This document shows positions 287-57,979 of a DNA stretch of 64,000 bases, one piece after another. This DNA is from Candidatus Brocadiaceae bacterium (GTDB lineage Bacteria; Planctomycetota; Brocadiia; SM23-32): assembly GCA_012728835.1 (NCBI GenBank), contig JAAYEJ010000067.1, positions 1-64,000 of the forward strand, given 5' to 3'. Both the position numbers and the translations under genes were made by a program. Position 1 is the stretch's first letter; every line of letters begins with the position of its first letter. Under the pieces are notes generated by a model. It was not told the origin of the DNA. It saw only the letters and a program-made list of their open reading frames with translations, and made no database searches.

Positions 287-2314
287 ATGACTCGATGGGA
301 ACTGCCGTTTCGCCAGATCCACCTGGATTTTCACACGAGCGAAGACATTCCCGACGTGGGCGCGGACTTCGACGCCGAGGAGTTCGCCGCCACCCTGGAG
401 AAGGCGCACGTCAACTCCGTCACCGCGTTCGGCCGGTGCCATCACGGCTGGATCTACTTCGATTCAAGGGAATTCCCCGAGCGCGTCCACCCGACGCTCG
501 CCCGCCGCGACCTGCTCAGGGAGCAGATCGAGGCCTGCCACGCGCGCGGCATCCGCGTGCCCATCTACACAACCGTTCAGTGGGACCACTACACTTCCCA
601 GCGCCATCCGGAGTGGTGCGTCCTGGACCCGGACGGCAGGCTGTCCGGCACCCCGCCGTACGAGGCCGGCTTCTACCGCTACCTCTGCGTCAACACGCCC
701 TACCGGGAATTTCTCAAGCTCCACGTGCGGGAGATGCTCGAGACGCTGCCCGTCGATGGGTTCTTCTTCGACATCGTCCAGCACCGCGACTGCTCCTGCC
801 GCGGCTGCCGGGACGATATGGAGGCAGCCGGGCTCGACCCGGCCGTCCACGCAGACCGCATGCGCCATGCGAAGCAGATGCTCGATGCGTTCAAGCAGGA
901 CATGACCGAGTTCGTGCGGCGGTTCAACAAGGACTGCCTCGTCTTCTACAACGCCGGGCACGTCGGGCCCGCCGTGCGGGATTCGGCCCCGGCCTACACG
1001 CACTTCGAAGTGGAGTCCCTTCCGAGCGGCGGCTGGGGCTACATCCACTTCCCGCTGTCCGTCCGCTACGCGCGCACGCTCGGCCGGGACTGCCTGAGCC
1101 ACACCGGGAAGTTCCACACCGCCTGGGGAGATTTCCACTCGTTCAAGAACCGGCCGGCACTCGAATTCGAGTGCCTGCGCATGCTGGCGCTGAACGCGAA
1201 GTGCGACGTGGGCGACCAGCTCCACCCGCGCGGCCGGCTCTGCCCGCACGTCTACGACCTGATCGGGTCGGTCTACAGCCTGGTCGAGGCGAGGGAGCCC
1301 TGGTGCGCGGGCGCCCGGGCCGTCGCGGAGATCGGCGTTCTGACGCCGGAGGAGTTCACCGGCCGGCGCGAGGCCGCCGCCGGCGCGGTGCGTATCCTGC
1401 AGGAAGGCGCGCGGCAGTTCGACGTGCTCGACACGCGCAGCGACTGGGCGCCGTACAAGCTGCTCGTGCTGCCCGATCACGTGCCCGTGGACGACGAGCT
1501 GGCCGCCCGGCTGCAGGGCTACCTCGACGCCGGAGGCCGGCTGATCGCTTCCTTCGAGTCCGGCCTGACCCCCTCGAAGGACCGCTTCGCGGCGGCAGGG
1601 CTCGGCGTGCGGCTCCGGCCGAACCCGACGCGGTGCCCCGACGGCCGGCTCGCGCGCGATACCGGGTGGGAGGGCCGCAGCGCATACGCCGAATACGTCC
1701 TCCCGTCGGGTGCCATCGGGCAGGGCCTGCCGCCCACCGAACACGTGATGTACGCGAAGGGCGTCGAAGTCGAAGCGCAGCCCGGAACGGACGTCCTGGC
1801 CCCCGTGATCGCATCCTACTTCGACCGCACGAGCGAACACTTCTGCTCGCACCGCCAGACGCCGTCTTCGGGCCGGCCCGACTACCCCGGCATCGTGCGC
1901 CGGGGCGGCGCCGTCTACTTCGCACACCCCGTCTTCAGCCTCTACAACGCGTGGGCGCCGCGCTGGTGCCGGACGCTCCTCCTGAACGCCGTGGACATGC
2001 TGCTGCCCGAGCCCCTGCTGCGCCACGACGGCCCGACGGGCCTCATGGCGACGGTGAACGAGCAGGCCGCCGAGCGGCGCTGGATCGTGCACCTGCTCCA
2101 TTACGTGCCCGAACGGCGCGGGCGTGAGCTGGACGTGATCGAGGACGTGATCCCGCTGTTCGGGCTGAACGTATCGGTCAAGGTGCCGGGGACGGTTCGG
2201 TCCGTGCGCAGGGTGCCCGACGGCGGGCCGCTGGAGTTCCGCTTCGAAGGCGGTCGGGTGGACTTCCTCCTGCAGCGCCTCGACGGCCACGCCATGGTGG
2301 AACTGGCGTTCTGA
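287..2314 (+). CDS. GHL6-like glycoside hydrolase with a beta-galactosidase trimerisation-like domain
   Basis: The protein has 675 residues and no signal peptide. The N-terminal 330 residues look like a TIM barrel of the hypothetical glycosyl hydrolase 6 type: a strand starting 'IHLDFHTSE', 'HGIRVPIYTT-like' strand ends, and 'VDGFFFDIVQH' near residue 160 as a likely active-site strand. Residues about 345-560 resemble the beta-galactosidase trimerisation (glutamine amidotransferase-like) domain, with 'KLLVLPDHVPVDDE' and 'YLDAGGRLIASFES'. The rest is beta-rich. An unknown carbohydrate substrate in the cytoplasm is likely. The start is set by a GAGGAGG Shine-Dalgarno at 273-279. It converges on the pseudopilin operon. 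Family membership is from memory of the fold pattern; the activity is inferred. Confidence 0.7.
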   Translation: MTRWELPFRQIHLDFHTSEDIPDVGADFDAEEFAATLEKAHVNSVTAFGRCHHGWIYFDSREFPERVHPTLARRDLLREQIEACHARGIRVPIYTTVQWDHYTSQRHPEWCVLDPDGRLSGTPPYEAGFYRYLCVNTPYREFLKLHVREMLETLPVDGFFFDIVQHRDCSCRGCRDDMEAAGLDPAVHADRMRHAKQMLDAFKQDMTEFVRRFNKDCLVFYNAGHVGPAVRDSAPAYTHFEVESLPSGGWGYIHFPLSVRYARTLGRDCLSHTGKFHTAWGDFHSFKNRPALEFECLRMLALNAKCDVGDQLHPRGRLCPHVYDLIGSVYSLVEAREPWCAGARAVAEIGVLTPEEFTGRREAAAGAVRILQEGARQFDVLDTRSDWAPYKLLVLPDHVPVDDELAARLQGYLDAGGRLIASFESGLTPSKDRFAAAGLGVRLRPNPTRCPDGRLARDTGWEGRSAYAEYVLPSGAIGQGLPPTEHVMYAKGVEVEAQPGTDVLAPVIASYFDRTSEHFCSHRQTPSSGRPDYPGIVRRGGAVYFAHPVFSLYNAWAPRWCRTLLLNAVDMLLPEPLLRHDGPTGLMATVNEQAAERRWIVHLLHYVPERRGRELDVIEDVIPLFGLNVSVKVPGTVRSVRRVPDGGPLEFRFEGGRVDFLLQRLDGHAMVELAF

Positions 2315-2340: not shown

Positions 2341-3294
2341 TCAGCGGCTCCGGGGGGTGTAGGCGCCCTGGAAGGTCCAGGCGCGGAACATGTTCCCGGT
2401 CGCGTAGGCGACCGAGACGATCATCCGGGCCGAGGTCCCGCGGGCGTTCGTCGGGTAGAACTGCACCGTGTAGTAGAAGCCGGGGTAGAACGGATGTTCC
2501 CGGGCGACGGTAACGGGCGTGCCGGCCTTGTGCGCGACGGCCGCCGTGCCGCCCACGCCGCGGTCGAACTTGCCGTCGTTGTTTGCGTCGCTGATCGTGA
2601 AGGAGGTCGCACTGCGCGCGTCGTAGCGCATCCACTCCTCGTCCACGACGATGTAGCCGGGCACCGGCGCCCCGGCATCTGACCCATCGGGGAGCCCCTG
2701 GGGGTTGCCGTTCACGAGGACCGTGTCGTCATCGTGGTCAATGTCCGCGTCCAGCACGTAGAACCATGTGCGCGGCTGCAGGATCGGGTCGCCCTGCACG
2801 TACGAACCGCCGGGCCCGGCCACGTGGTCGCAGGTCGCGAATCTGTTGGCCAGCCTGCGGCTGTAGTAGATCAGGTCGCTGCCGATCAGGAACGGTCCCT
2901 CCGTGCGGGTGTCTTCCTGTTCCGCCTGCAGCGGGAAGAAGTTGTGCCGGATGGGGTAGAGGTCGAAGTTCGCCGAGGGGTAGTCCATCTCGGCCTGTGT
3001 CGTCTGGACGTCGAAGCTGCCGTCGCCGGCGCTCGCCGTCGGCTGGTTCAGGTCCGTCTTGGCGAAGACCTCGCTGAAGCGCACATCCTGGGCCTCGGCG
3101 ATGAGTTCCTCGGCGATGAAGGCGGCCGTGCGGCGGTTGGACGCTTCGGCGTGGAGGACGCCGGCGGTGACGAAGAGGCTGACGATACTGACCGAACCGG
3201 TCAGGAACACGGCCAGCCCCAGGAGGACCTCCGTCAGCGTCATGCCGGACCGACGGCCGGCGCCGCGTGCAAGCGTTTTGCAGATGCGATGCAT
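2341..3294 (-). CDS. GspI/PilV-like minor pseudopilin
   Basis: A prepilin-type protein of 317 residues. The leader ends RRSG and is followed by MTLTEVLLGLAVFL, so cleavage falls after Gly with Glu at +5, then a hydrophobic helix. I choose ATG 3294 because AAGGAGG lies 5 nt upstream; an in-frame ATG at 3354 would add 20 residues with no such signal. The C-terminal part (DNA about 2500-2658) carries the GYIVVDEEWMRY ... RGVGGT ... AHKAGTPV module shared with its neighbours. It is last in the six-gene operon, 56 nt after the GspJ-like gene. It should sit at the tip or base of a pseudopilus after processing by a prepilin peptidase such as the one at 50637. The minor pilin class is inferred from gene order. 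Confidence 0.8.
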   Translation of the reverse strand: MHRICKTLARGAGRRSGMTLTEVLLGLAVFLTGSVSIVSLFVTAGVLHAEASNRRTAAFIAEELIAEAQDVRFSEVFAKTDLNQPTASAGDGSFDVQTTQAEMDYPSANFDLYPIRHNFFPLQAEQEDTRTEGPFLIGSDLIYYSRRLANRFATCDHVAGPGGSYVQGDPILQPRTWFYVLDADIDHDDDTVLVNGNPQGLPDGSDAGAPVPGYIVVDEEWMRYDARSATSFTISDANNDGKFDRGVGGTAAVAHKAGTPVTVAREHPFYPGFYYTVQFYPTNARGTSARMIVSVAYATGNMFRAWTFQGAYTPRSR

Positions 3295-3350
3295 GTCCGC
3301 CTCCTTCGCCGGCCCATGGCCGGGGCGCCGGCCCGCAGCCGGCGGGGTTG

Positions 3351-4583
3351 TCACCAGGATTCCCTGCCAGTGAGGTTGCGGAAGACGCGGCTGAACGTGA
3401 AGCCGAACTCGACTGGCGCGCCGACGGCGTGGGCGACCTCCGCCGTGCCGCGGACAGCGCGCTCACACCCGGTGAAGGTCTGCGTGTCCTCGTCGAATGC
3501 CTCGAACCGGATCCACTCGTCCTCGATGCGGATGTAGGGCCACCGGGTGTTGTAGGCCGGCACATTGCCCCGCACGCGGATGCTGTCCCCGAGGTCCTCC
3601 ACCACCTCCAGGCGCCCGACGCCGGGCAGCCGGTCCGGCGGCGTCGTCACGACCACCACCATGATCGCCGAGGGGAAGACGTTGTCGTCGACCCGCTCCT
3701 CTTCTGTGGCATAGTCGTCGGGATCGGCGAAGCCGGGCTGGCCCCAGTCCATCCGGAATGACGGCGTTGAGGCGTCGTCCAGCCGGTCGCTGTCCCACGC
3801 GAACAGCGGGCCGCAGGTGGTCGGCTTATACGAGTTGGTCCAGACGTGGAAATCCGGGTCGCCCCGGCCCTCCCAGGTGGTCGTGTACTGGCTCCAGCAG
3901 CGGACTTCGAAGTGGAGCACGTTCTCGGCCAGCGGCAGCGCCTTCCCCTTGATGCGGTCGGCGGTCGCAAGCACGTCCCTGTCGAAGAACGTATGCCCGG
4001 GATCGTCCAGGTTGACGGGGTCGTCTCCTATGGGCGAGAGCACCGCGCGGTAGAGCGTGTCGGAGTCGTCGCCGTCCAGCCCGCGCAGGTAGGCCACCTC
4101 GCAGAGGCCCTCGAGCGGGGCCAGGTCATCCTCCATGTCGATCAGGTTGTAGACGCCGGTCGCGTTGGCGACGTCGCCGGCCGCGCGCAGGTAGGGGTTG
4201 AGGGTCTGGTCGGGAAGCCCCCGGACGAACCGCAGCCTCTGCCGGCCCTCATCGTCCCCGTCCACCCAGAACTTGATGCGCATGTCGTAGTCTTCGGCTT
4301 CCTTGTTCCAGAACTGGCTCCGGCAGGCCCCGATGTCGTCGGCGATCTGGTGGAAGACGATGGTGGCGGCGTCGTAGGCGGCGGCGCGGCGATGGCCGAT
4401 CCGCCACAGGCTGCTGCCATACTGCAGGGTGCGGATGGCGATCGAGCCGAAGATGATCACCAGCGTCATGGCGACCAGCATCTCGACAAGCGTAAACCCG
4501 GCCCGGCGCCGGGACGCCGCCCTGGCCTGCGTCGCACAGCGCCTGCCCGTGAGTCCTGTCGTTTGTCGCTCTCGACTGATCAT
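3351..4583 (-). CDS. GspJ-like minor pseudopilin
   Basis: A protein of 410 residues with a class III prepilin signal: RRRAG followed by FTLVEMLVAMTLVII (cleavage after Gly, Glu at +5). GspJ proteins usually have about 200 residues, so this one is long. The extra length is acidic, Asp-rich beta sequence, and it ends with a copy of the shared module (YIRIEDEWIRFE ... RAVRGT ... AHAVGAPV, DNA about 3405-3560). Asp-rich loops could bind calcium as in other GspJ/GspK proteins, but no canonical site is obvious. It starts 24 nt after the GspK-like gene, with a weak GAGGG ribosome site. The GspJ assignment rests on gene order and length rank, not on a diagnostic motif. Confidence 0.75.
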   Translation of the reverse strand: MISRERQTTGLTGRRCATQARAASRRRAGFTLVEMLVAMTLVIIFGSIAIRTLQYGSSLWRIGHRRAAAYDAATIVFHQIADDIGACRSQFWNKEAEDYDMRIKFWVDGDDEGRQRLRFVRGLPDQTLNPYLRAAGDVANATGVYNLIDMEDDLAPLEGLCEVAYLRGLDGDDSDTLYRAVLSPIGDDPVNLDDPGHTFFDRDVLATADRIKGKALPLAENVLHFEVRCWSQYTTTWEGRGDPDFHVWTNSYKPTTCGPLFAWDSDRLDDASTPSFRMDWGQPGFADPDDYATEEERVDDNVFPSAIMVVVVTTPPDRLPGVGRLEVVEDLGDSIRVRGNVPAYNTRWPYIRIEDEWIRFEAFDEDTQTFTGCERAVRGTAEVAHAVGAPVEFGFTFSRVFRNLTGRESW

Positions 4584-4607
4584 GTCTGTCTATCCCTCAC
4601 AGGCGGC

Positions 4608-7600
4608 TCAGAAAGTCATGGGCTCGGGGACCATCTCGATTCGGACTTCGTCCAGCTCCACCATCTCCGACCAGCCGCCGCCCGGCACGGGCGCGCCGGC
4701 TTCATAGGTGGTGCTGTAGGGCTCCGTCTCGGACAGGTCGAAGTAGAACCGCACTTCGACCCGGGTGTTGACCACCGGCCGCTCGCCGGCGCCGTTGGAG
4801 AGCGAGAGCACGTCCTCCTGGTCGCCCTCGTTGCAGATCCGGCCCCAGATGTTGTCTGCCGCGCTCGCGTCCGGGTTCGTGTTCCAGGGCTCCGTGTCGT
4901 CGATCTTGACGACGACGGCGACCTGCTGGCCCTCTTCGAGTGGCTCCTTGAAGCGCCACCGCACGGTCCGCAGCCGGCCCGGGCGGTCGACGCTGAAGCT
5001 GTACATGCACATGTCGCCGCCCAGTTCGGCCCCCGTGTATCCCGTATGGTTGCCCCAGGCGGTTCCGACCTGATAGCGATCCAGGTGCCGCACGGGCACG
5101 TGGCGGACGATGTCGCCGGCCGCATGGCCTGCGGCGGCCGTGTTGTAGCAGCCGCGCCGGTAGCCGCCGCCAAGCCGCAGCTCGCCTTGCGGAGGCGTGC
5201 CCCAGGCCGCGATTTCCTCGTAGGCCAGGATCTCGTCGCCGATCTTCACGTAGCCGGTGAGGGGCAGCACCGAGGCGTCCTCCACCGCGATGGCGGTGTC
5301 GCCGGCCCCAACGCCGGCGACCAGCCGGGTGGCCGGCAGGAAGCTGAGCGGGATGACCGCGCGCCAGCCCTCATGGACCTCGGCGAAGCCGCCGCCCAGC
5401 GGGGTCAGGTCGTCGCGCATCTGCGCCACACCGGCGAACGTGTGCCCCGGCGGCGAGAGGAACTCCTGGTAGCTGTAGATGTGCCCGGCCACCATGAACA
5501 GCCCGCTGAGGGGCATCTCGGCCCGGCCCAGGGCCTCGGCCATGTCGAAGGCGCTCCCCGCCTCGCGCCCCAGCAGCGGCCAGCCGGTGGCGTCGTCCCA
5601 GGTCCACCGCTCGACCGTTCCGTCGGTCGCGGCGGCGCTCCAGTCGGCAGCAGCCACCCGCAGATTCGGCAGGGCCGTCAGGCGCAGTTCGTCCAGTTCG
5701 CCCTCGAAGACCTCGCCGCCGTCCCGCGCACCGCCGAGGCTGAGTTCGCTCCCCACGGGGCCGCACGGCAGGGTGCCCGACAGCAGGGGCGTGCCCGCCA
5801 GCACGGCGGCCGTGTGCTTGACGAGCACCTTCCACCGGTCCTCCGGCAGCAGGTCGCCGGCTCCTTCCAGCGGGTAGAGCGTCGGGTCCAGCCCGATCCA
5901 CCGGAAGTCGTGGTACGCCGCCCAGGTCGGCCAGGCGCCCATCGGGTGCGAGGTCCCGACGATATACGAGTTCGCGGGAACCGCGCCCCGGTCATAGGAG
6001 CCGTTGCCCAGGTCCGTGTGGTACCACAGCGAGACCTCGTCGGTTGCCACGGGGGGCTGCCAGCCGGCCGAATGCACCGTGGTGCGGACGACGGGCAGCA
6101 TCAGGGCCACCAGCTCGCCCCGCATGTGCGTCTCTTCGAGGCCCTTCGCGCTTCCGTCCGCGAAATCCACCAGATGGAGGGCGTCGACCTCCACCATGTT
6201 CCCGCTGCCGGGCGGATCCTCGACCCAGTATGTGCCCTTGGCGTCGTAGGCGTAGGCGTGTCCGGCGGAGCCGATGACGACGGCGCCCTGCTCCGGCAGC
6301 CACGAGGCATCGTCCAGGCCGATGTAGCCCAGCGTCAGGGGCCACTCGCCGGTCGGCCCGGGGCCCCAGGTGACCGCCGCCGTGCGGTTCGGATAGGCCA
6401 TGGCGACCGGCAGGAAGGAGCCCTCCTGCACGGCGCCCGGGCCCGCCTGGCCGGTCGGGTGATGGAACGTCCAGTCCATTTCCCGATCGTAGATGCCGTC
6501 GATGAACATGGCGATCTCGTTGCGGAACGTGCCCGCGACAGCCACCGCCACGTGGTACCACCGGTTGGACTCCAGGGGGATGTCGGAGACGGCCTCCACG
6601 TAGCCCTCGTATCCGGCGAGCGTCCGGTCGCCGACGGGCTCGTCGATGCGGAGCTTCAGCCGGCCGTCCTCCAGGTAGACGCGCACCTGGTTGATCGCCG
6701 TCAGCGCGTCGGGGTCGGCTCCGTCGCCGAGGTCCACCAATAGCTGCCGCGAGGTCACGTCGTCGGCGGGCCGCATCCAGAACTCCACGGCGAAAGGCTG
6801 GATGGTGGCGTCGCGCGAGTCGGCTTCGACGTGCCGCTCCCCGGCGACCGCGTCGTAGTGCGTGCGGTAAGCGAGCCGCGTGGACCGCAGGCCCTCGCTC
6901 GTTGTGTTCGTCACGTCGGCCTCTGTGCCCAGCACCATCTCCGTGTCGGCGGCGATGGAGAAGTCCAGGTCGAAGCTCGGCGTGCTCTCGTGCAGCCCCT
7001 CCTGAAGCGTCGTGTAGCGGGTGGCGTTCAACTGGTCCAGGAGAGGAGCCACCGTGCCGACGCCGTCGTCGAGGTCCTCGTAGACGTCCGTCGTTGCGGC
7101 GTCAAACGTCGCGGGATCGAAGCCCATGTTGATGGGGTTGGTGAGGAAGTTCCCGTTGCCGCCGGCCGTCTGCCAGTGGGTCCAGAAGTCCTTCTGGCTC
7201 CGCAGGACCCAGTAGAGGGGGTCGAGCGGCGGGGCGACGTCGTAGATGCGCGCGATCGCCAGGCCGGCGTTCACGGGCACCTGGGCGATGGGCGTGCCGG
7301 CCCGGTCGTCGACGATGCCCACCGAGTCGATGCCGATCATCGTGCCGCTGTTGAACCGCAGGGGCACGGTGGAGACGGCCGGCCAATCCGCCGGGTCGGT
7401 GTCGAAGTTGTGCCTCAGCAACTGCACCTGCGCGGCGGAGAGCGAGGCTACGGTGCCGAAGAAGGCGTCCAGATCCGCCCGGTCGACGAACCAGTTCTCG
7501 CCGGAGGTACGGTCGAGCAGCGCTTGGGCCACGGCGTCCGCTTCGGCCGGCCCGATGCTCGTCGTGTCGTCGCTGATGCCATCCAGGATCGAGCGCAGGA

Positions 7601-9164
7601 CGATGTCGCTCGTGACGGTGTTGATGTTGATCGCGTGCCGCGCCTCGGCGTGGAGTTCGTCGGGGTCCGCGCCGCCGCTCTGATACTCCTCGTACAGGTC
7701 GATCTCCCAGGAGATCACGCAGCCGTCCAGAGACCGCCCCGCGTCGTGGTCCACACCGGATGTGCCGAACTCCCCGCGCGTGACGCCGGTCAGCAGCGGG
7801 TAGGGCGCCGCCGTGGCGTCGATGCCCGTGTAGCTGATCCACTCGTGTCCCTCCACCGGGTCCTCGATGCGGATGTAGCCCGTGGCGCCGTCCATCAGGC
7901 GGAACCCGGCGACGCTGGTGACCGGGATGTCCGCTGGAGACTCGTCGATGTCCTCGGCCAGTTGTGTGTCTTCGTTGCGGGAGGAGACGATGCGGTACTC
8001 CGCGTCCCCGGTCGGCGTGTCCGTCAGCCGCACGATGGTGCCGAGCCCGATGCCGTTGGCGGAACTCAGGTTCGCCGAAGACTGGTCTGTGGCCGCGTCG
8101 CCTCCGCTCGGGCCGGCCTCGATGTTGCCCTGGAGTGCAAAGGGTCCCTGCCAGCGGGAGGTGCCGGTGTGTTCCGAATGGACCGTGACGTAGCGGCGAA
8201 GCTTGTCGAAGTCGGCGGCGCTCAGCGGCGCGCTGGTCGCGCCCCAATAGGTCCCGTCCGCGTCCGCGATGTTCTTGAGCATGCTGAGGTTCTGGAAGGG
8301 GGTGTATTCGATGTCGGTCGACGTCTTCCACCAGGTGTAGTAGAGCCGGTAGTTGGAGATGGCCCGGGCGATGTCCATCCGGTTGCCGGCGTCGGTGCCG
8401 ATCCCCAGCTCCTCCAGCAGGTTCAGGATCACGTCGTAGGGCGCCGTGTTGATGTTGATGAGCGCCTGCTGGTCCTGCACGGTCAGATGCCACAGCGCGC
8501 TGTCGGGGTAGAAGGACACGATGGCGCCGGGCGCATGCGCCTCCGGTGTCGTCCCGAACAGGCCCCGGTGCTCGTCGAGCACCGTCAGGGTTCCGTGCGG
8601 GAAGTCGGCGCTGCTCGGGTCCATGTCGTCCCGGCGGACGTAGGCCAGCCACTCGTTGTTCACGCGGATGTAGCCGTCGACCGTGTTGTCGTCCCCGTCG
8701 TTCGGGAATCCGAGGGCGTTCTCAACGGTCAGGGTCCCGCCGCCGGCAGCGCCCAGGGTGCTGGCGGTGGCCCGCGTGCGCAGCGTGACGTGGAACTCCC
8801 AGGGCGTGTCGACCGCCGGATCATTGAACGGGAAGAAGGCGTCGGGCGTGGCGCTCGCGAATGCCTGGTCTTCGAGGGCGTAGACGCCGCGGCTCAGCAC
8901 GGCGATGGCGTGGCTGACGGCGCCCTGGGCGCCGGCGCGGGCGCGGACCGCGTGCAGGGCCTGCGTGCCCGAGCCGTGCTGCATGCGCATGAAGACGGCG
9001 AAGGGCAGGGCCAGCAGGAACATGGCGGCCAGCACGATGAGGGCCAGCATCAGCGCGGCCCCCCGGCGGCCGTCCCGTCCGCCCGGGATGCGGGCCCGCG
9101 GGCCCGGTGTGGTGTCGCTCGTGGTTCTCATGCGTTCTGCCTCGCTTCTGTGCCGCGCTGTCAT
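4608..9164 (-). CDS. Giant GspK-like pseudopilin with LamG domain and three EWxxY/RGxxGT modules
   Basis: The protein has 1518 residues, against about 330 for typical GspK. It begins with a basic leader, GRRG, and the helix AALMLALIVLAAMFLLALPF. Lack of Glu at +5 is usual for GspK. Residues near 230 contain 'INTAPYDVI', the helix-hairpin signature of GspK, which recurs as 'ININTVTSDIV'. A LamG/ConA-like region begins near residue 780 ('FAVEFWMRP', 'NRWYHVAVAVAG') and ends near 1160 ('GELDELRLT'). Three copies of the shared module lie at DNA about 8511-8676, 7715-7887 and 5100-5258. The start codon overlaps the preceding stop as ATGA, which suggests translational coupling; ATG 9131 is an alternative start. 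It probably caps the pseudopilus and displays a large sugar- or surface-binding head. That role is inference. Confidence 0.75.
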   Translation of the reverse strand: MTARHRSEAERMRTTSDTTPGPRARIPGGRDGRRGAALMLALIVLAAMFLLALPFAVFMRMQHGSGTQALHAVRARAGAQGAVSHAIAVLSRGVYALEDQAFASATPDAFFPFNDPAVDTPWEFHVTLRTRATASTLGAAGGGTLTVENALGFPNDGDDNTVDGYIRVNNEWLAYVRRDDMDPSSADFPHGTLTVLDEHRGLFGTTPEAHAPGAIVSFYPDSALWHLTVQDQQALININTAPYDVILNLLEELGIGTDAGNRMDIARAISNYRLYYTWWKTSTDIEYTPFQNLSMLKNIADADGTYWGATSAPLSAADFDKLRRYVTVHSEHTGTSRWQGPFALQGNIEAGPSGGDAATDQSSANLSSANGIGLGTIVRLTDTPTGDAEYRIVSSRNEDTQLAEDIDESPADIPVTSVAGFRLMDGATGYIRIEDPVEGHEWISYTGIDATAAPYPLLTGVTRGEFGTSGVDHDAGRSLDGCVISWEIDLYEEYQSGGADPDELHAEARHAININTVTSDIVLRSILDGISDDTTSIGPAEADAVAQALLDRTSGENWFVDRADLDAFFGTVASLSAAQVQLLRHNFDTDPADWPAVSTVPLRFNSGTMIGIDSVGIVDDRAGTPIAQVPVNAGLAIARIYDVAPPLDPLYWVLRSQKDFWTHWQTAGGNGNFLTNPINMGFDPATFDAATTDVYEDLDDGVGTVAPLLDQLNATRYTTLQEGLHESTPSFDLDFSIAADTEMVLGTEADVTNTTSEGLRSTRLAYRTHYDAVAGERHVEADSRDATIQPFAVEFWMRPADDVTSRQLLVDLGDGADPDALTAINQVRVYLEDGRLKLRIDEPVGDRTLAGYEGYVEAVSDIPLESNRWYHVAVAVAGTFRNEIAMFIDGIYDREMDWTFHHPTGQAGPGAVQEGSFLPVAMAYPNRTAAVTWGPGPTGEWPLTLGYIGLDDASWLPEQGAVVIGSAGHAYAYDAKGTYWVEDPPGSGNMVEVDALHLVDFADGSAKGLEETHMRGELVALMLPVVRTTVHSAGWQPPVATDEVSLWYHTDLGNGSYDRGAVPANSYIVGTSHPMGAWPTWAAYHDFRWIGLDPTLYPLEGAGDLLPEDRWKVLVKHTAAVLAGTPLLSGTLPCGPVGSELSLGGARDGGEVFEGELDELRLTALPNLRVAAADWSAAATDGTVERWTWDDATGWPLLGREAGSAFDMAEALGRAEMPLSGLFMVAGHIYSYQEFLSPPGHTFAGVAQMRDDLTPLGGGFAEVHEGWRAVIPLSFLPATRLVAGVGAGDTAIAVEDASVLPLTGYVKIGDEILAYEEIAAWGTPPQGELRLGGGYRRGCYNTAAAGHAAGDIVRHVPVRHLDRYQVGTAWGNHTGYTGAELGGDMCMYSFSVDRPGRLRTVRWRFKEPLEEGQQVAVVVKIDDTEPWNTNPDASAADNIWGRICNEGDQEDVLSLSNGAGERPVVNTRVEVRFYFDLSETEPYSTTYEAGAPVPGGGWSEMVELDEVRIEMVPEPMTF

Positions 9165-10576
9165 GGCCAGACCACCCGGCCCACCACGCCCGCCGGCGTC
9201 ACGCGCACGACGCGGGCGAACCAGACGGGGTCGCCCGCGTCGTGCGCATCCGCCAGCGTCCCGTACGCGGCGCGGCGGTCGTTGAACTGAATCAGGTTGA
9301 GGTTCGCGCCGGCGGCCGAGTCATACCGGATCAGTTCGTAGTACACCTCCCCGGCGTCTTCGCTGCGTATGAGCACGATGCCGCCGTCGGGCGGCATGGG
9401 GTTGCGGCCCTGCAGGGGGAGTGTCAGGGCGTCGACGGCGACGTCGCCGGCGAGTTCGGCCATCTGGTAGGGGTCGCCGACCGCGATGAAGACGTCGCCG
9501 CCGTGGTAGGCGATGTCGAGCCGGCCCTGTCCGTCGAAGTGGATGGCGCCGTGGGAGGAGAAGATCGGGACGCCCTCGGGCATCCGGGTGCGCTCGCCGC
9601 CGGCCACCGACAGGATCTTGGGCTGGTCGATCCGGCCCTGCATGTACACCGTGGTCCCCATGGGGGGGAACAGCGCGGCGCCGATCGTCAGGTTCGCCCC
9701 CCGGGCGGCGCGGATCCGCTGGGGCGCGACGAATGTCACGTCCGTGTTCTGCGGCGGGTTGGGCGGGTTGGGATCGGCCACGGGGTTATCGTCTTCGGGC
9801 TGACGAGAGCTGTCCAGGTCGGCCAGGACGCCGTTGACGAACAGGCGCGCTTCATAGCCGTCGAACTCGATGGCCACATGGCTCCATTCCTGCCCGGCGA
9901 TCTCGAAATCCTCATGGGCCCTGAGCATGATCGCCGTGTTGGCAGGGTCGTCGTCCAGGAAGAAGCCGCCGCAGGGCGCATATCGCTCCGGGGACGTGCC
10001 GGTGCAGACGAGTCCCATGGCGTAGCCGGCGGCGTCGGGGTTCACACTGGACTTGCCCATCACGCCCAGCAGTTCACCAGTGGCTACGGTCGGTGCGTCC
10101 GGCCACACCCAGGTCTCGATGCGGACGCCGTCGGTCTGGTTGAAGACGGGCGGATTCCCGCAGTCGATGTAGTCGTCGCCGTCAAACGCCAGGCTGAGCC
10201 CCACGGCGCCTCCGTGGCCCTGGGTGACGCCGCCGTTCACCTCGCCGTCGTAGCCCTTCGCGCCGGGGGTGATGGTGCCGTCGATGTGTTCGAAGTGCCA
10301 GGCGCCCTCGATGGAGGTCGAGAGGCCGTAGATGGAGCGTTCGACGGGGTCGATGCGGACCAGAGCGCCGCGGCCGCTGTCGACGGCGGAGATCTGGGCC
10401 CGCCGCAGCAGGCTCTGGATGTCCTGCGCGGCGCCTTCGCGGCTGGTGCGCCGCCCGACCGCGGAGAACGACGCGACCAGCATGCCGGCGACGACGGCGG
10501 CGATGGCCATCACGACCAGCAGTTCGATGAGGGTGATGCCGCTGCGCGGCCTGCTCTGGTGCCGGATGCGCCCCAT
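9161..10576 (-). CDS. GspH-like pseudopilin with inserted LamG domain
   Basis: A protein of 471 residues with the prepilin signal RPRSG|ITLIELLVVMAIAAV, Glu at +5. After about 60 residues of GspH-like sequence ('LLRRAQISAVDSGRGALVRID') comes a LamG/concanavalin-like domain: 'GLSLAFDGDDYIDCG', 'VRIETWVWP', 'EWSHVAIEFDGYEARLFVNG'. The C-terminus carries a diverged copy of the shared module (ELIRYD ... RAAYGT ... AHDAGDPV, DNA about 9215-9393). ATG 10576 is chosen because GGGAGGAG precedes it and it lies 4 nt after the GspG-like stop. GspH is normally about 170 residues, so the LamG insertion explains the size. A surface-exposed binding head is inferred. Confidence 0.8.
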   Translation of the reverse strand: MGRIRHQSRPRSGITLIELLVVMAIAAVVAGMLVASFSAVGRRTSREGAAQDIQSLLRRAQISAVDSGRGALVRIDPVERSIYGLSTSIEGAWHFEHIDGTITPGAKGYDGEVNGGVTQGHGGAVGLSLAFDGDDYIDCGNPPVFNQTDGVRIETWVWPDAPTVATGELLGVMGKSSVNPDAAGYAMGLVCTGTSPERYAPCGGFFLDDDPANTAIMLRAHEDFEIAGQEWSHVAIEFDGYEARLFVNGVLADLDSSRQPEDDNPVADPNPPNPPQNTDVTFVAPQRIRAARGANLTIGAALFPPMGTTVYMQGRIDQPKILSVAGGERTRMPEGVPIFSSHGAIHFDGQGRLDIAYHGGDVFIAVGDPYQMAELAGDVAVDALTLPLQGRNPMPPDGGIVLIRSEDAGEVYYELIRYDSAAGANLNLIQFNDRRAAYGTLADAHDAGDPVWFARVVRVTPAGVVGRVVWP

Positions 10577-10580
10577 GGCC

Positions 10581-11432
10581 TCACTCCTCCCAGTTGGTGA
10601 GCTTTCCGGACTTCTTCCACCAGCCGGGCAACCAGCCGGGCTCGGTCGGGACAGGCAGGCCGCCGTCCTCATCGCAGCCGGCCATGCCCTCCAGCCCCCA
10701 ACTGAAGAGCTGGAAGGTGTTCAGGTTCGGGTGGTTGTCCGTCGTCGTGCCGTAGTAGCTGCGGGCATAGCAGGGCTGGAGAACCCCATCGACATCCGCG
10801 TACGGGAGGGCTTCCGTGCCGGTTGCCGGGGCATACCACACGTCGTTCTCCTCGTCCCAGCCGTCGTAGTCGGCGTAGTAGCGGTTGTGGACGTAGACGA
10901 GCGGGTTGCCCCAGTAGTCGACGATCTCGAAGATCTGGCGGCCGCCGAAGTACCAGTTGGTGGCCTGGGCGACGTCATTCTGAAGGGTGTCGTTCTCCCG
11001 GTCATCGGGGGCGGCGTTCAGGTCGTCGGGCACGTCGACGTTGCGCAGCCAGTCGCCTTCCGGTTGGAGGTAAGGTCCGCCGGTCCGGCTTGCCAGGCAC
11101 GCGACGAAGACCTCGATGCCTTCGTTGATGGTGCTGGGCTCCGTGCCCGTGTCCAAGCCGTCCAGGTGGCCGTCTATGTCGTTGTAGTCGAACAGCTCGG
11201 CGAGTTCGTCCCAGTGCATGGGCGGGTATTGGCCGTAGTCGTTGAAGAAGGCCGTGGCGGCCAGCTCGCACTGGCGGATTCGGGCCACGGTGACGGTCAC
11301 TCCCGACCTGTTCATGGCGGCGATGATGGCCGGGGTGAGCAGTCCGGCCAGCACGGCGATGATGGTGATCACGACGAGCAGTTCCACCAGGGTGAACGCT
11401 GCCCGCCCGGCGACGTTTCGTTCCACATGCAT
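10581..11432 (-). CDS. gspG: GspG-like major pseudopilin
   Basis: A protein of 283 residues with AGRA|AFTLVELLVVITIIAVLAGL at the N-terminus. The residue before the cleavage site is Ala instead of Gly, which class III prepilins tolerate. The following region (MNRSGVTVTVARIRQCELAATAFFNDYGQYPP) matches the GspG pattern of an N-terminal helix followed by 'A...F..D.G.YP'. The extended C-terminal half is unlike classic GspG (about 145 residues) and rich in Tyr, Trp and Asp. ATG 11432 is preceded by AAAGGAG at 7 nt. It is second in the operon, after gspF. It should polymerise into the pseudopilus shaft in the periplasm. Confidence 0.8.
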   Translation of the reverse strand: MHVERNVAGRAAFTLVELLVVITIIAVLAGLLTPAIIAAMNRSGVTVTVARIRQCELAATAFFNDYGQYPPMHWDELAELFDYNDIDGHLDGLDTGTEPSTINEGIEVFVACLASRTGGPYLQPEGDWLRNVDVPDDLNAAPDDRENDTLQNDVAQATNWYFGGRQIFEIVDYWGNPLVYVHNRYYADYDGWDEENDVWYAPATGTEALPYADVDGVLQPCYARSYYGTTTDNHPNLNTFQLFSWGLEGMAGCDEDGGLPVPTEPGWLPGWWKKSGKLTNWEE

Positions 11433-11518
11433 CGTTCGGCTCCTTTCCCTGTATTCAGCCGGCCGATGCCCGACAGCCGGGCCGGCGGCGCCTGTGCGTC
11501 TTGTGGACGGTGCACCCA

Positions 11519-12766
11519 TCACTTCGTACTCCCGGAGAGCGCGCTCATTATCGAGACCAGGGGCATGAAGAGTGCGATGACGATGAAGCCGACGACGACA
11601 CCCATGCCGACGACCAGGATGGGCTCCATGAGGCGGGTGAGGCCTTCGACGGCCACGTCGACCTCCTGGTCGTAGTTGTCGGCCACCTTCATGAGCATCG
11701 CGTCGAGGTTGCCGGTCTCCTCTCCGACGTCGATCATGTTCACGACGATGTCATCGCAGACCTTGCTCTGTCCGAGGGGTGCGGCAATGGGGTCGCCCTC
11801 GCGGACGCTGTCGTGCACGGACTGGATGGCGTTGGCGAGCACCATGTTGCCGGCGGTGTCGCGGGAGATGTTCAGGGCCTCCAGGATGGGCACGCCGCTG
11901 CCGATCAGGGTGCCGAAGGTGCGGGTGAAGCGCGCGATGGCCGACTTGTTGACGATACTGCCGAACAGGGGCACGTGGAACTTGGTCCAGTCGACGGTCA
12001 GCCGGCCGATGCGGGTGCTGACGATGATCTTGTAGAGGACGAAGATGCCGACCGGGACCGCCGGCAGGACGTACCAGTACTTCGTGCACCACGAGGTGAT
12101 GTCCAGCAGTAGCTGGGTCGCCGCCGGCAGCTTGACCTCCATCTCAAGGAACATGTCGATGAAGGACGGGATGATCCACTTGATCAGGCCGGCCAGGATG
12201 AGGGTGGCGATGCTCAGGACGGCCACGGGGTAGATGAGGGCGCCGACGACGCGGCGCTTCAGCCGGGCGGCCTTCTCACGGAAGTCGGCCAGGCGCTGCA
12301 GGACCAGGTCGAGCATGCCGCCGGTTTCGCCGGCCTTGACCATGTTGCAGTAGAGTTCGTCGAAGGCCTTCGGGTGCTTGGCCATGGCCTCCGAGAGGCT
12401 GGCGCCGCCCTCGACCTCGTCGGCGACCGACCCGACGATGTTCTTCAGTGCCCCGGCCCGCATCTGGCCTTCCAGGATGTTGAGGGCCTGCACGATCGGG
12501 ATGCCGGCGTCGGTCAGGGTGGAGAGCTGCCGGGTGAAGCCTGTCAGGTCCTTGCCGCTGACACCGCCGATGGTGAAGGACTTCTTCCGGATGCGCCGGG
12601 TGGAGGTCCGACGCTGGCCGGTCTCGGCCTTCTTCTGCGTGACCCGGGTGGGGAACAGGGCCATCCCGCGGATCTTGGCGATCGCCTCGTCCTGGTTGCG
12701 GGCGTCAACCTGGTCGACGATGGCCTTGCCCTCGGCATTCATCGCCTCGAATTCAAAGGTTGGCAT
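11519..12766 (-). CDS. gspF: Type II secretion/type IV pilus inner-membrane protein GspF/PilC
   Basis: A protein of 415 residues, the usual GspF length. Its N-terminus (MPTFEFEAMNAEGKAIVDQVDARNQ) is the typical start of GspF. Two T2SSF domains follow, about 95-220 ('FTRQLSTLTDAGIPIVQALNIL' type, with 'GETGGMLDLVLQRLADF') and about 295-410 ('FTRTFGTLIGSGVPILEAL', 'GEETGNLDAMLMKVAD'). Three membrane helices are visible, including one around 'LIYPVAVLSIATLILAGL'. It forms the platform that couples the motor ATPase to pseudopilin assembly. ATG 12766 has AAGGAG upstream; the in-frame ATG 12832 does not. It leads the operon, 115 nt below a strong promoter. No GspE/PilB motor or secretin gene is in the window. 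Confidence 0.93.
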   Translation of the reverse strand: MPTFEFEAMNAEGKAIVDQVDARNQDEAIAKIRGMALFPTRVTQKKAETGQRRTSTRRIRKKSFTIGGVSGKDLTGFTRQLSTLTDAGIPIVQALNILEGQMRAGALKNIVGSVADEVEGGASLSEAMAKHPKAFDELYCNMVKAGETGGMLDLVLQRLADFREKAARLKRRVVGALIYPVAVLSIATLILAGLIKWIIPSFIDMFLEMEVKLPAATQLLLDITSWCTKYWYVLPAVPVGIFVLYKIIVSTRIGRLTVDWTKFHVPLFGSIVNKSAIARFTRTFGTLIGSGVPILEALNISRDTAGNMVLANAIQSVHDSVREGDPIAAPLGQSKVCDDIVVNMIDVGEETGNLDAMLMKVADNYDQEVDVAVEGLTRLMEPILVVGMGVVVGFIVIALFMPLVSIMSALSGSTK

Positions 12767-12880
12767 CGCGGACACTCCTTCGCATGAGAACGGTTCTTCC
12801 GGCCTGTTCCGGGCCGGACACCTGGATTTCAAGACTCAGCGCGGCTTCACTGTCAATGTGCTTCCCAAGTCCGTGAATGG

Positions 12881-56685: not shown

Positions 56686-56710
56686 CGCATGGGGGGGCGG
56701 CTGCTAACAT
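56682..56710 (+). promoter_or_regulatory. Sigma70-type promoter of pilT
   Basis: TTGACG (56682-56687), 17 nt, TAACAT (56705-56710), 49 nt upstream of the start. The -35 overlaps the waaA stop codon. Confidence 0.7.
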
Positions 56711-56758
56711 ACGGCTTCCATAACGCGGCACCTCGGGAACCCAACGGAGGTAGACGCC

Positions 56759-57979
56759 ATGGCTCAGGTGGACAAGTTTCTGAGCTTTCTTGTCAAGAAT
56801 AGCGGTTCTGATCTGCATCTGGTCACCGGGTCCCCGCCGATCGTCCGCATCGACGGCAAGCTTCAGAAGATGAAACTCCCGCCGCTCACCGGCGAACAGG
56901 TGAAGTCGCTGATCTACGAGATCATACCCGAGCGGAACCGGAAGGAATACGAGGCGATCAACGACACGGACTTCGCCTACGAGATTGCCGGTGTCGCCCG
57001 ATTCCGCACAAACGTCTACATGGACCTGAACGGGCCGTCGATGGCCCAGCGTCTGATCCCGTTCGACATCATGACGGTCGACGACCTCGGCATCTCCCCG
57101 GAGATCCGGGACCTCATGATGCTCCCGAAGGGCATCGTGCTCTGCACCGGGCCGACCGGCTGCGGCAAGAGCACCACGCTGGCCGCGCTGCTGCACTATG
57201 CCAACGAACGCCGGCACGACCACGTGATCACCATCGAAGACCCCGTGGAGTTCGTCCACAGCAACGTCAACTGCATCTTCAGCCATCGGCAGGTCGGCCT
57301 GCACACCGAGAGCTTCAAGCGGGCACTGCGCGCGGCCTTCCGCGAGGACCCCGACATCATCCTCGTCGGCGAGATGCGCGACCTGGAAACGACGGCCCTG
57401 GCCATCACGGCCGCCGAGACGGGCCACCTCGTCCTGGCCACCGTCCACACGACCACGGCGTCGAGCACGGTCGACCGCGTCATCGACCAGTTCCCCCCGG
57501 ACCGCCAGGCGCAGATCCGCGTCATGCTGTCCAGCACGCTCAAGGCCGTCATCACGCAGGCCCTCTGCCGGCGCAAGGTCAAGGGGCGGATCGCCGCGTT
57601 CGAGATCCTCGTCGTCCACAGCGCCGTGCAGAACCTGATCCGTGAGAAGAAGACGTACCAGCTTCCCTCGACGATCCAGACGGGCCGCAAGTACGGCATG
57701 TGCACCATGAACGAGTCGCTCATGCAACTGGTCGAGGACGGCTTCATCGATCTGGAAGAGTCCTTCAGCAAGTCCGTCGACAAGCAGGACATGAACGACC
57801 GCGTGAACAACTACCTGCTCGCCCTCGTGCAGCAGGGGCAGATCGCGCCCGTCGAGGCCGTCAAGCAGTCCTACTTCCGCCCCAACATGATCGAACTGCT
57901 CCGGGCCCACGGACACGGGAAGAGCCTGCGAGACGTCGATCTGGCCCACCTGGACCTGGCGGACGAGCAGATCATCTGA
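56759..57979 (+). CDS. pilT: Type IV pilus retraction ATPase PilT
   Basis: A protein of 406 residues, somewhat longer than PilT of about 345. Walker A is at residues 131-140 (GPTGCGKSTT), the Asp box in ITIEDPVEFVH, Walker B in IILVGEMRDLET and the His box in ATVHTTTASSTVDR. The N-terminal PAS-like domain begins 'GSDLHLVTGSPPIVRIDGKL', typical of PilT. The extra C-terminal stretch is charged and helical. GGAGGT precedes ATG 56759. It powers pilus retraction; with the pseudopilin operon it implies a working pilus system, though the extension motor is not in the window. Confidence 0.95.
   Translation: MAQVDKFLSFLVKNSGSDLHLVTGSPPIVRIDGKLQKMKLPPLTGEQVKSLIYEIIPERNRKEYEAINDTDFAYEIAGVARFRTNVYMDLNGPSMAQRLIPFDIMTVDDLGISPEIRDLMMLPKGIVLCTGPTGCGKSTTLAALLHYANERRHDHVITIEDPVEFVHSNVNCIFSHRQVGLHTESFKRALRAAFREDPDIILVGEMRDLETTALAITAAETGHLVLATVHTTTASSTVDRVIDQFPPDRQAQIRVMLSSTLKAVITQALCRRKVKGRIAAFEILVVHSAVQNLIREKKTYQLPSTIQTGRKYGMCTMNESLMQLVEDGFIDLEESFSKSVDKQDMNDRVNNYLLALVQQGQIAPVEAVKQSYFRPNMIELLRAHGHGKSLRDVDLAHLDLADEQII

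What the first reader, a model, noticed from the sequence alone, without database searches (positions are those of the whole stretch)
2500..9393. A shared roughly 55-residue module recurs six times in four pseudopilins of one operon
Comparing the proteins of the operon by eye shows one pattern in all but the major pseudopilin: G-(Y)-(I/V)-x-(I/V)-x-x-E-W/I-(I/L/M)-x-(Y/F), a variable stretch, R-G-x-x-G-T or similar, then A-H-x-x-G-x-x-V. Copies: GspI-like 2500-2658, GspJ-like 3405-3560, GspK-like 5100-5258, 7715-7887 and 8511-8676, GspH-like (diverged) 9215-9393. A motif of this look ('E.I.Y ... RG..GT.A..H..G..V') is one I associate with phage-tail-like proteins. Its presence in several minor pseudopilins is new to me. 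It suggests a common add-on domain spread between pseudopilins, perhaps forming the exposed tip of the fibre.
Basis: partly seen in the sequence, partly recalled or inferred. Interest (0 to 1): 0.72.

Follow-up and report, generated by a model that had tools for sequence, protein, structure and literature searches.

The report
Phage-tail barrels repeated in pilus tips
A small protein barrel known from phage tail tips has been built six or more times into the minor (probably tip-forming) subunits of a pilus-like fibre in a planctomycete, and a version in two of those subunits recurs across about half of the phylum's genomes, so it looks like a widespread but unnamed building block of pilus tips.

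Summary
The six segments are homologous: profiles trained without each paralogue group recover it at E 3e-5 to 7e-11, and the diverged GspH copy at 5e-7 to 1e-3, with no shuffled decoy below 0.01. The unit is about 75-90 residues, longer than stated; three more degenerate copies are probable. The major pseudopilin lacks it, and in the 3.07 Mb genome it occurs only in this operon. A profile made only of pseudopilin copies finds two phage tail-tip proteins in the whole PDB (JBD30 baseplate hub 1.3e-7, 8vjh 1e-6; next 0.11), so the phage likeness is homology. The architecture is not local: 155 of 294 Planctomycetota genomes have a match; in the loci read it is mostly a G-H-K-J-I operon with a giant GspK (2-6 copies) and a GspJ with one copy. 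GspI and GspH copies were found only in the window's family. Relatives' operons add PilB-type ATPases with a c-di-GMP motif, PilT and PilC/GspF. Best reading: a retractile pilus with a large modular tip, in which barrels brace the minor subunits and LamG domains bind. Homology and spread are shown; function is inferred. New variant of the known 'modular pilin' kind.

The parts
2494..2748 (-). module copy I2 in the GspI-like pseudopilin (residues 203-287)
   Evidence: leave-out profile 1.6e-9; own genome search 3.4e-23; coordinates
2764..3012 (-). probable degenerate copy I1, tandem to I2 (residues 115-197)
   Evidence: same place holds an intact copy in orthologues G1, G3 and G5; in the window only E 0.006 with the combined profile
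3396..3623 (-). module copy in GspJ (residues 321-396), in a loop near the C-terminus
   Evidence: leave-out profile 5.5e-10; AF2 pLDDT 89.6, pTM 0.78
8505..8783 (-). module copy K1 in GspK (residues 128-220), within the pilin core
   Evidence: leave-out profile 6.9e-11
7713..7973 (-). module copy K2 in GspK (residues 398-484)
   Evidence: leave-out profile 1e-7
5091..5339 (-). module copy K3 in the GspK C-terminal extension (residues 1276-1358); orthologous to the last GspK copy elsewhere in the phylum
   Evidence: leave-out profile 3.1e-5; tree group 95/98
6081..6332 (-). probable degenerate copy in GspK (residues 945-1028)
   Evidence: profile-profile P 5e-5 to 8e-5 against GspK and combined module profiles, not against the GspJ profile (0.02)
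5334..5516 (-). probable degenerate copy in GspK directly before K3 (residues 1217-1277)
   Evidence: profile-profile P 3e-4 to 1e-3; matches the tandem position in other planctomycetes
9206..9466 (-). diverged module copy in GspH (residues 403-489)
   Evidence: 5e-7 to 1e-3 with profiles that never held it; 5.6e-6 in the whole genome; orthologue in G003 7.6e-6
2341..3354 (-). GspI-like minor pseudopilin gene
   Evidence: NCBIfam PilV/GspI weak N-terminal matches; orthologues
3351..4583 (-). GspJ-like minor pseudopilin gene
   Evidence: PF07963 above cut-off; weak TIGR02599/gspJ
4608..9164 (-). giant GspK-like pseudopilin gene, 1518 aa
   Evidence: NF037980 E 8e-5, below cut-off; both NxNT stretches present
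6486..6839 (-). LamG (concanavalin A-like) domain of GspK
   Evidence: PF13385 39.9 bits, cut-off 27.6
9161..10672 (-). GspH-like pseudopilin gene
   Evidence: PF07963 above cut-off; TIGR01708 E 1.4e-8, below cut-off
9809..10183 (-). LamG domain of GspH
   Evidence: PF13385 31.2 bits, cut-off 27.6
10581..11522 (-). major pseudopilin GspG-like, no module
   Evidence: PF07963 above cut-off; TIGR01710 E 9e-9, below cut-off; no module hit
11519..12832 (-). PilC/GspF-like inner-membrane platform gene heading the cassette
   Evidence: NF052606 2e-116, TIGR02120 1e-114, both below their equivalog cut-offs

Best explanation
The operon encodes the subunits of a type IV pilus / type II secretion-like fibre. 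The repeated segment is a small beta-barrel of the family that serves as a brace in phage tail-tip hub proteins, inserted into loops of the minor pseudopilins. GspK and GspJ took it up early and keep it over much of the Planctomycetota; in this family GspI and GspH gained copies too. Most likely the minor pseudopilins form a K-I-J-H cap on the fibre; the barrels pack between neighbouring heads as clamps and spacers that hold together an unusually large cap; and the LamG domains of GspK and GspH are the binding surface. PilB-type ATPases with a c-di-GMP motif and a PilT-type ATPase would extend and retract it. Shown: homology of the copies, phage kinship, spread over the phylum, gene neighbourhood. 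Inferred: tip position, clamp role, ligand binding, retraction.
For: Homology of copies. Phage kinship: PDB 8rk3 1.3e-7 and 8vjh 1e-6 with a pseudopilin-only profile; of ten JBD30 proteins searched only gp53 matches, at 478-563; [quoted passage not shown] Fold: AF2 model all-beta, JBD30 hub TM 0.61, phage models TM 0.6-0.75. Spread: 155 of 294 phylum genomes, G-H-K-J-I loci, absent from H/I/G elsewhere, J and last-K groups in the tree. Machine: PilB-type, PilT-type, PilB-type, PilC/GspF next to the pseudopilins in relatives; PilT and the c-di-GMP motif over cut-off, same ATPase trio in the own genome on another contig. LamG in GspK and GspH. GspK-I-J as fibre tip: PMC8179133.
Against: Nothing shows that the barrels lie at subunit interfaces; the full GspI model is low-confidence and shows no usable fold. 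In other proteins of the class the barrel sits alone in enzyme-like proteins, so it is not tied to fibre assembly. No Foldseek match passes E 0.001. That our stretch is exactly domain VI of gp53 is inferred from position and fold. The ATPase trio and the pseudopilins are on different contigs in this genome.
Confidence: 0.5

Rival explanations
1. The barrels themselves are the adhesive units: many copies at the fibre tip bind polysaccharide or another surface ligand with high avidity, as other small beta domains inserted in phage tails are thought to do.
For: Domain kin in phage tail tips; phage tails do carry oligosaccharide-binding insertions (RcGTA paper PMC7296036); the barrel also occurs in glycoside-hydrolase-like proteins (named by my reading); modular pilins commonly present binding modules (PMC8179133).
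Against: The hub barrel of JBD30 is described as stabilising the baseplate, not as binding a receptor; the invariant residues are few (E, R, H) and no ligand is known; LamG domains are already there as likely binders.
Confidence: 0.25
2. A type II secretion pseudopilus: the barrels and LamG domains at the piston tip recognise exported enzymes in the periplasm, and no surface fibre is made.
For: Subunits are of the GspG/H/I/J/K kinds; the genome has several secretin genes.
Against: PilT family ATPase over its cut-off inside the relatives' operon and in the own genome fits a retractile pilus better; no exported protein with the module exists elsewhere in this genome to be recognised by like-with-like pairing.
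Confidence: 0.15
3. The inserts are tolerated, largely neutral decorations: a mobile domain that duplicates easily and lands in surface loops.
For: Several copies have decayed; copy number in GspK varies from 2 to 6; the domain also sits in unrelated proteins.
Against: GspJ and last-GspK copies are retained with positional orthology over the phylum, which neutral inserts would not be.
Confidence: 0.08
4. The motif is a chance or convergent resemblance read by eye.
For: Single-sequence comparisons between most copies are near background.
Against: Leave-one-out profiles, whole-genome specificity and PDB specificity.
Confidence: 0.02

Closest known systems
Modular type IV pilins (Raynaud et al. 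2021, PMC8179133: PilB with a vWA module, PilC with a lectin module; GspK and ComZ as pilins with inserted domains)
   Same: A non-pilin module is grafted onto or inserted into pilins; LamG-type (PF13385) modules are among those listed there
   Different: One and the same uncatalogued, phage-related barrel sits in up to four subunits of a single operon, several times in a giant GspK, with positional conservation over a phylum
Baseplate hub protein gp53 of Pseudomonas phage JBD30 (PDB 8rk3; PMC11445458)
   Same: Homologous domain at residues 478-563, E 2.6e-8 locally and 1.3e-7 in the PDB; probably its small six-stranded barrel, domain VI
   Different: One copy in a trimeric phage hub against many copies in cellular pseudopilins
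Cyanophage gp7 baseplate wedge initiator and large structural proteins (P-HM2, Syn30)
   Same: One or two copies in the stretch read, E about 1e-13
   Different: Huge virion proteins, no pilin part
Pfam PF23666 Rcc01698_C (gene transfer agent megatron protein)
   Same: The only Pfam family hit by more than one copy; E 0.0088 in one planctomycete GspK
   Different: Below the curated cut-off in every copy; kinship not established by this test
MSHA-type retractile pili of Vibrio (MshE, PilT; PMC7096442, title and abstract seen)
   Same: PilB-type ATPases with the MshE-related c-di-GMP motif beside a PilT-family ATPase
   Different: GspG/H/I/J/K-type subunits, a giant GspK and barrel modules

Membership tests
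Modular pilins | N-terminal prepilin (class III signal / N_methyl) motif | tested here: met
   PF07963 above cut-off in GspJ, GspH and GspG; below cut-off in GspI (13.1 vs 21.2 bits) and not reported in GspK, where the motif is seen by eye
[quoted passage not shown]
   LamG in GspK and GspH; phage-type barrel in all four
Modular pilins | Presentation of the module on the filament, with a function | not testable with these tools
   needs microscopy and binding assays
Phage tail-tip barrel family (JBD30 gp53 type) | Significant profile match | tested here: met
   1.3e-7 and 1e-6, next hit 0.11; local search 2.6e-8 with no other JBD30 protein among ten hit
Phage tail-tip barrel family (JBD30 gp53 type) | Same fold | tested here: inconclusive
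   GspJ copy only: TM 0.61 to 8rk3, 0.6-0.75 to phage models, but no Foldseek E below 0.001 and F1-ATPase barrels rank first by E-value
PF23666 Rcc01698_C | Score over the Pfam cut-off | tested here: not met
   16.8 vs 27 bits at best; 2 of 21 copies at E up to 10
T2SS minor pseudopilins GspH/I/J/K (NCBIfam equivalogs) | Score over the equivalog cut-offs | tested here: not met
   GspH 34.9 vs 80, GspI 17 vs 44.35, GspJ 13.8 vs 64.85, GspK 22.3 vs 130 bits; hence named '-like', by gene order and N-terminal similarity
Type IVa pilus machine | PilT-family retraction ATPase with the assembly genes | tested here: met
   TIGR01420 437 vs 319 bits inside the relative's cluster; 436 bits in the own genome, on another contig from the pseudopilins
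Type IVa pilus machine | PilB extension ATPase over its equivalog cut-off | tested here: not met
   631 and 618 vs 675.65 bits, 627 and 619; GspE cut-off 630 is also missed: intermediate between the two
Type IVa pilus machine | Surface fibre that extends and retracts | not testable with these tools
   needs live imaging

The most novel reading that the evidence does not exclude
Planctomycetota build a distinct class of pilus whose tip is a giant multi-barrel cap, with a phage-baseplate brace domain reused as a common interlocking part in all minor subunits: cellular fibre tips and phage tail tips sharing the same construction element, kept at fixed positions over the phylum.
Probability: 0.35. 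Interest if true: 0.8.

Novelty: new variant of a known kind. Interest (0 to 1): 0.62.

Why it matters
It links pilus tips and phage tail tips through a homologous domain that Pfam does not name, and turns one odd operon into a recurrent architecture of Planctomycetota, a phylum whose surface fibres are little understood. It gives a profile for annotating giant GspK proteins whose C-terminal parts now carry few or no domain names, and a concrete case of how minor pilins evolve: one insert passed among neighbours in an operon. If the barrels clamp the cap, it also makes a testable prediction about how large pilus tips are held together.

Tried and rejected
Single-sequence phmmer between copies was too weak to decide; replaced by leave-one-out profiles. 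Full-length GspI structure: low confidence and no useful fold match. A duplication of the GspK core (two 'NxNT' stretches) was considered and dropped: both stretches recur over the phylum and, from my own knowledge, canonical GspK has both. A chance motif was rejected. Direct Pfam naming of the module: none over cut-off. F1-ATPase barrels as true relatives: fold-level likeness only, none among the sequence hits. No paper on planctomycete GspK modules was found in the held library.

Full report
What is there. On the - strand a PilC/GspF-like gene (11519-12832) is followed by pseudopilin genes of the GspG, GspH, GspK, GspJ and GspI kinds running down to 2341. The finding says one module recurs six times in all of them except GspG. 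GspK is giant (1518 aa) and, like GspH, carries a LamG domain. Related records are titled Planctomycetota, among them 'Planctomycetes bacterium SM23_32'.

Is it more than chance? Direct pairwise comparison is weak except between GspI and GspJ. I collected orthologous operons from genomes of the same family, built profiles from all paralogue groups but one, and searched for the group left out, with 1800 shuffled sequences in the set. The window copies I2, J, K1, K2 and K3 are each recovered (3e-5 to 7e-11), and GspH, never used for training, at 5e-7 to 1e-3; no shuffled sequence came below 0.01. Over the 3.07 Mb genome in six frames the profile finds exactly these six places, the next candidate being at E 0.45 (five of the six were in the training set, GspH was not and scores 5.6e-6). 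Five of nine family genomes have the module. The true unit includes an N-terminal hairpin and measures about 75-90 residues; E, R and H are invariant over 21 copies. Three more copies are likely but degenerate: one in GspI, where three of the four orthologues that cover the region keep an intact tandem copy, and two in GspK.

What is the module? PHROGs gives 'tail protein' for 12 of 21 copies singly. A tblastn with the GspJ copy against 50,697 phage records hits 106, all but one from cyanophages; the rows listed are mostly structural, VrlC or baseplate wedge proteins, best E 2e-4. A profile of pseudopilin copies only, against 177,635 PDB sequences, puts the JBD30 tail-tip hub first (1.3e-7, residues 491-560) and another phage minor tail protein second (1e-6); the third hit is at 0.11. 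In a local search of ten JBD30 proteins only gp53 is hit, at 478-563, and cyanophage gp7 shows two copies at about 1e-13. [quoted passage not shown] that our stretch is domain VI is my inference from position and fold. The AF2 model of the GspJ copy is confident (pLDDT 89.6, pTM 0.78) and all-beta. Foldseek ranks F1-ATPase N-terminal barrels first by E-value, but the JBD30 hub has the highest query TM-score among the rows listed (0.61), and phage models reach 0.6-0.75 at probability 1.00; no match passes E 0.001. Structure thus agrees with the sequence result without proving it alone. The nearest Pfam family, PF23666 Rcc01698_C, stays below its cut-off.

How widespread? Among 75 genomes of the class, 12 have the module; outside the family it sits in molybdopterin-oxidoreductase-like and glycoside-hydrolase-like proteins (names from my reading of the sequences, not from a family search). 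In an even draw of 294 Planctomycetota genomes of at least 90% completeness, 155 have a match at 1e-4 or better, in 116 of 206 genera. I read 20 loci chosen from strong matches, so not a random sample: 18 are pseudopilin loci, 17 of them with a module-bearing GspJ, and the giant GspK has roughly 1400-2070 residues and 2-6 copies. In contrast 11 GspH, 10 GspI and 7 GspG homologues in those loci, and five pilins of family member G004, show no module. A tree of 87 copies puts the phylum's GspJ copies on one side (with this family's I2; 91/83) and the last GspK copies, including K3, together at 95/98; the alignment is short and many deep forks are open.

The machine. In relatives the pseudopilins follow PilB/GspE-type, PilT-type, PilB/GspE-type and PilC/GspF-type genes. 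The PilT protein exceeds its curated cut-off and both PilB-type ATPases exceed the cut-off of the MshE-related c-di-GMP motif, while the PilB and GspE equivalog cut-offs themselves are narrowly missed. The window's genome has the same ATPase trio on contig C45. MshE and PilT drive a retractile, c-di-GMP-controlled pilus in Vibrio (PMC7096442, title and abstract only). This favours a dynamic pilus over a pure secretion piston, although the subunits are of type II kinds.

How it probably works. GspK, GspI and GspJ are proposed to form the tip of type II pseudopili (PMC8179133). Barrels in loops of GspK and GspJ, and here GspI and GspH, would then lie around that tip. In the phage hub the barrel braces neighbouring domains, so I take bracing as its likeliest role here: holding together a very large cap whose LamG domains meet a surface or polymer. 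This step is inference; tip position, packing and ligand were not tested. The main rival is that the barrels bind a ligand themselves. I put about 0.95 on the homology and phage kinship and about 0.5 on the whole mechanism.

Novelty. Modular pilins are known, LamG modules in pilins included (PMC8179133). One shared, unnamed, phage-related barrel in up to four subunits of one operon, conserved in GspK and GspJ over a phylum, I did not find described in the held library, which lacks most subscription papers. I rate it a new variant of a known kind.

Noticed in passing
window 56708-57976 (+): A PilT-family ATPase gene (TIGR01420 432 bits, cut-off 319) lies 44 kb from the pseudopilin operon in the same window.
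   Followed up: partly
G000:C67:83043-83537 (+), 19 kb beyond the window end: A secretin gene (PF00263, 140.6 bits) on the same contig; seven secretin matches in the genome.
   Followed up: no
L135 2987-4933 and 6114-7856 (own genome, contig C45): Two PilB/GspE-type ATPases around a PilT, both with the MshE-related c-di-GMP motif over cut-off; same trio as in relatives' pilin operons.
   Followed up: partly
L056 4310-7573, L057 4422-7691: The same barrel is inserted in a protein that reads like a molybdopterin oxidoreductase with a twin-arginine signal, in one genus of the same class.
   Followed up: partly
L058 6122-8992, L059 4743-7628, L060 4431-8303, L061 5208-9776, L064 5569-7887: The barrel is inserted in large glycoside-hydrolase-like proteins of other families of the class; genome G011 has about eight module-bearing proteins.
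   Followed up: partly
L139 2945-8126 (phage P-HM2 gp7): Cyanophage baseplate wedge initiator gp7 holds at least two tandemly spaced copies of the barrel in its N-terminal third.
   Followed up: no
L012, L015 (genome G001): Genome G001 has GspI genes with the module on two contigs, so either two operons or a mixed bin (contamination 5%).
   Followed up: no
window 287-2314 (+): A 675 aa ORF converging on the operon reads like a glycoside-hydrolase-type protein; not searched.
   Followed up: no
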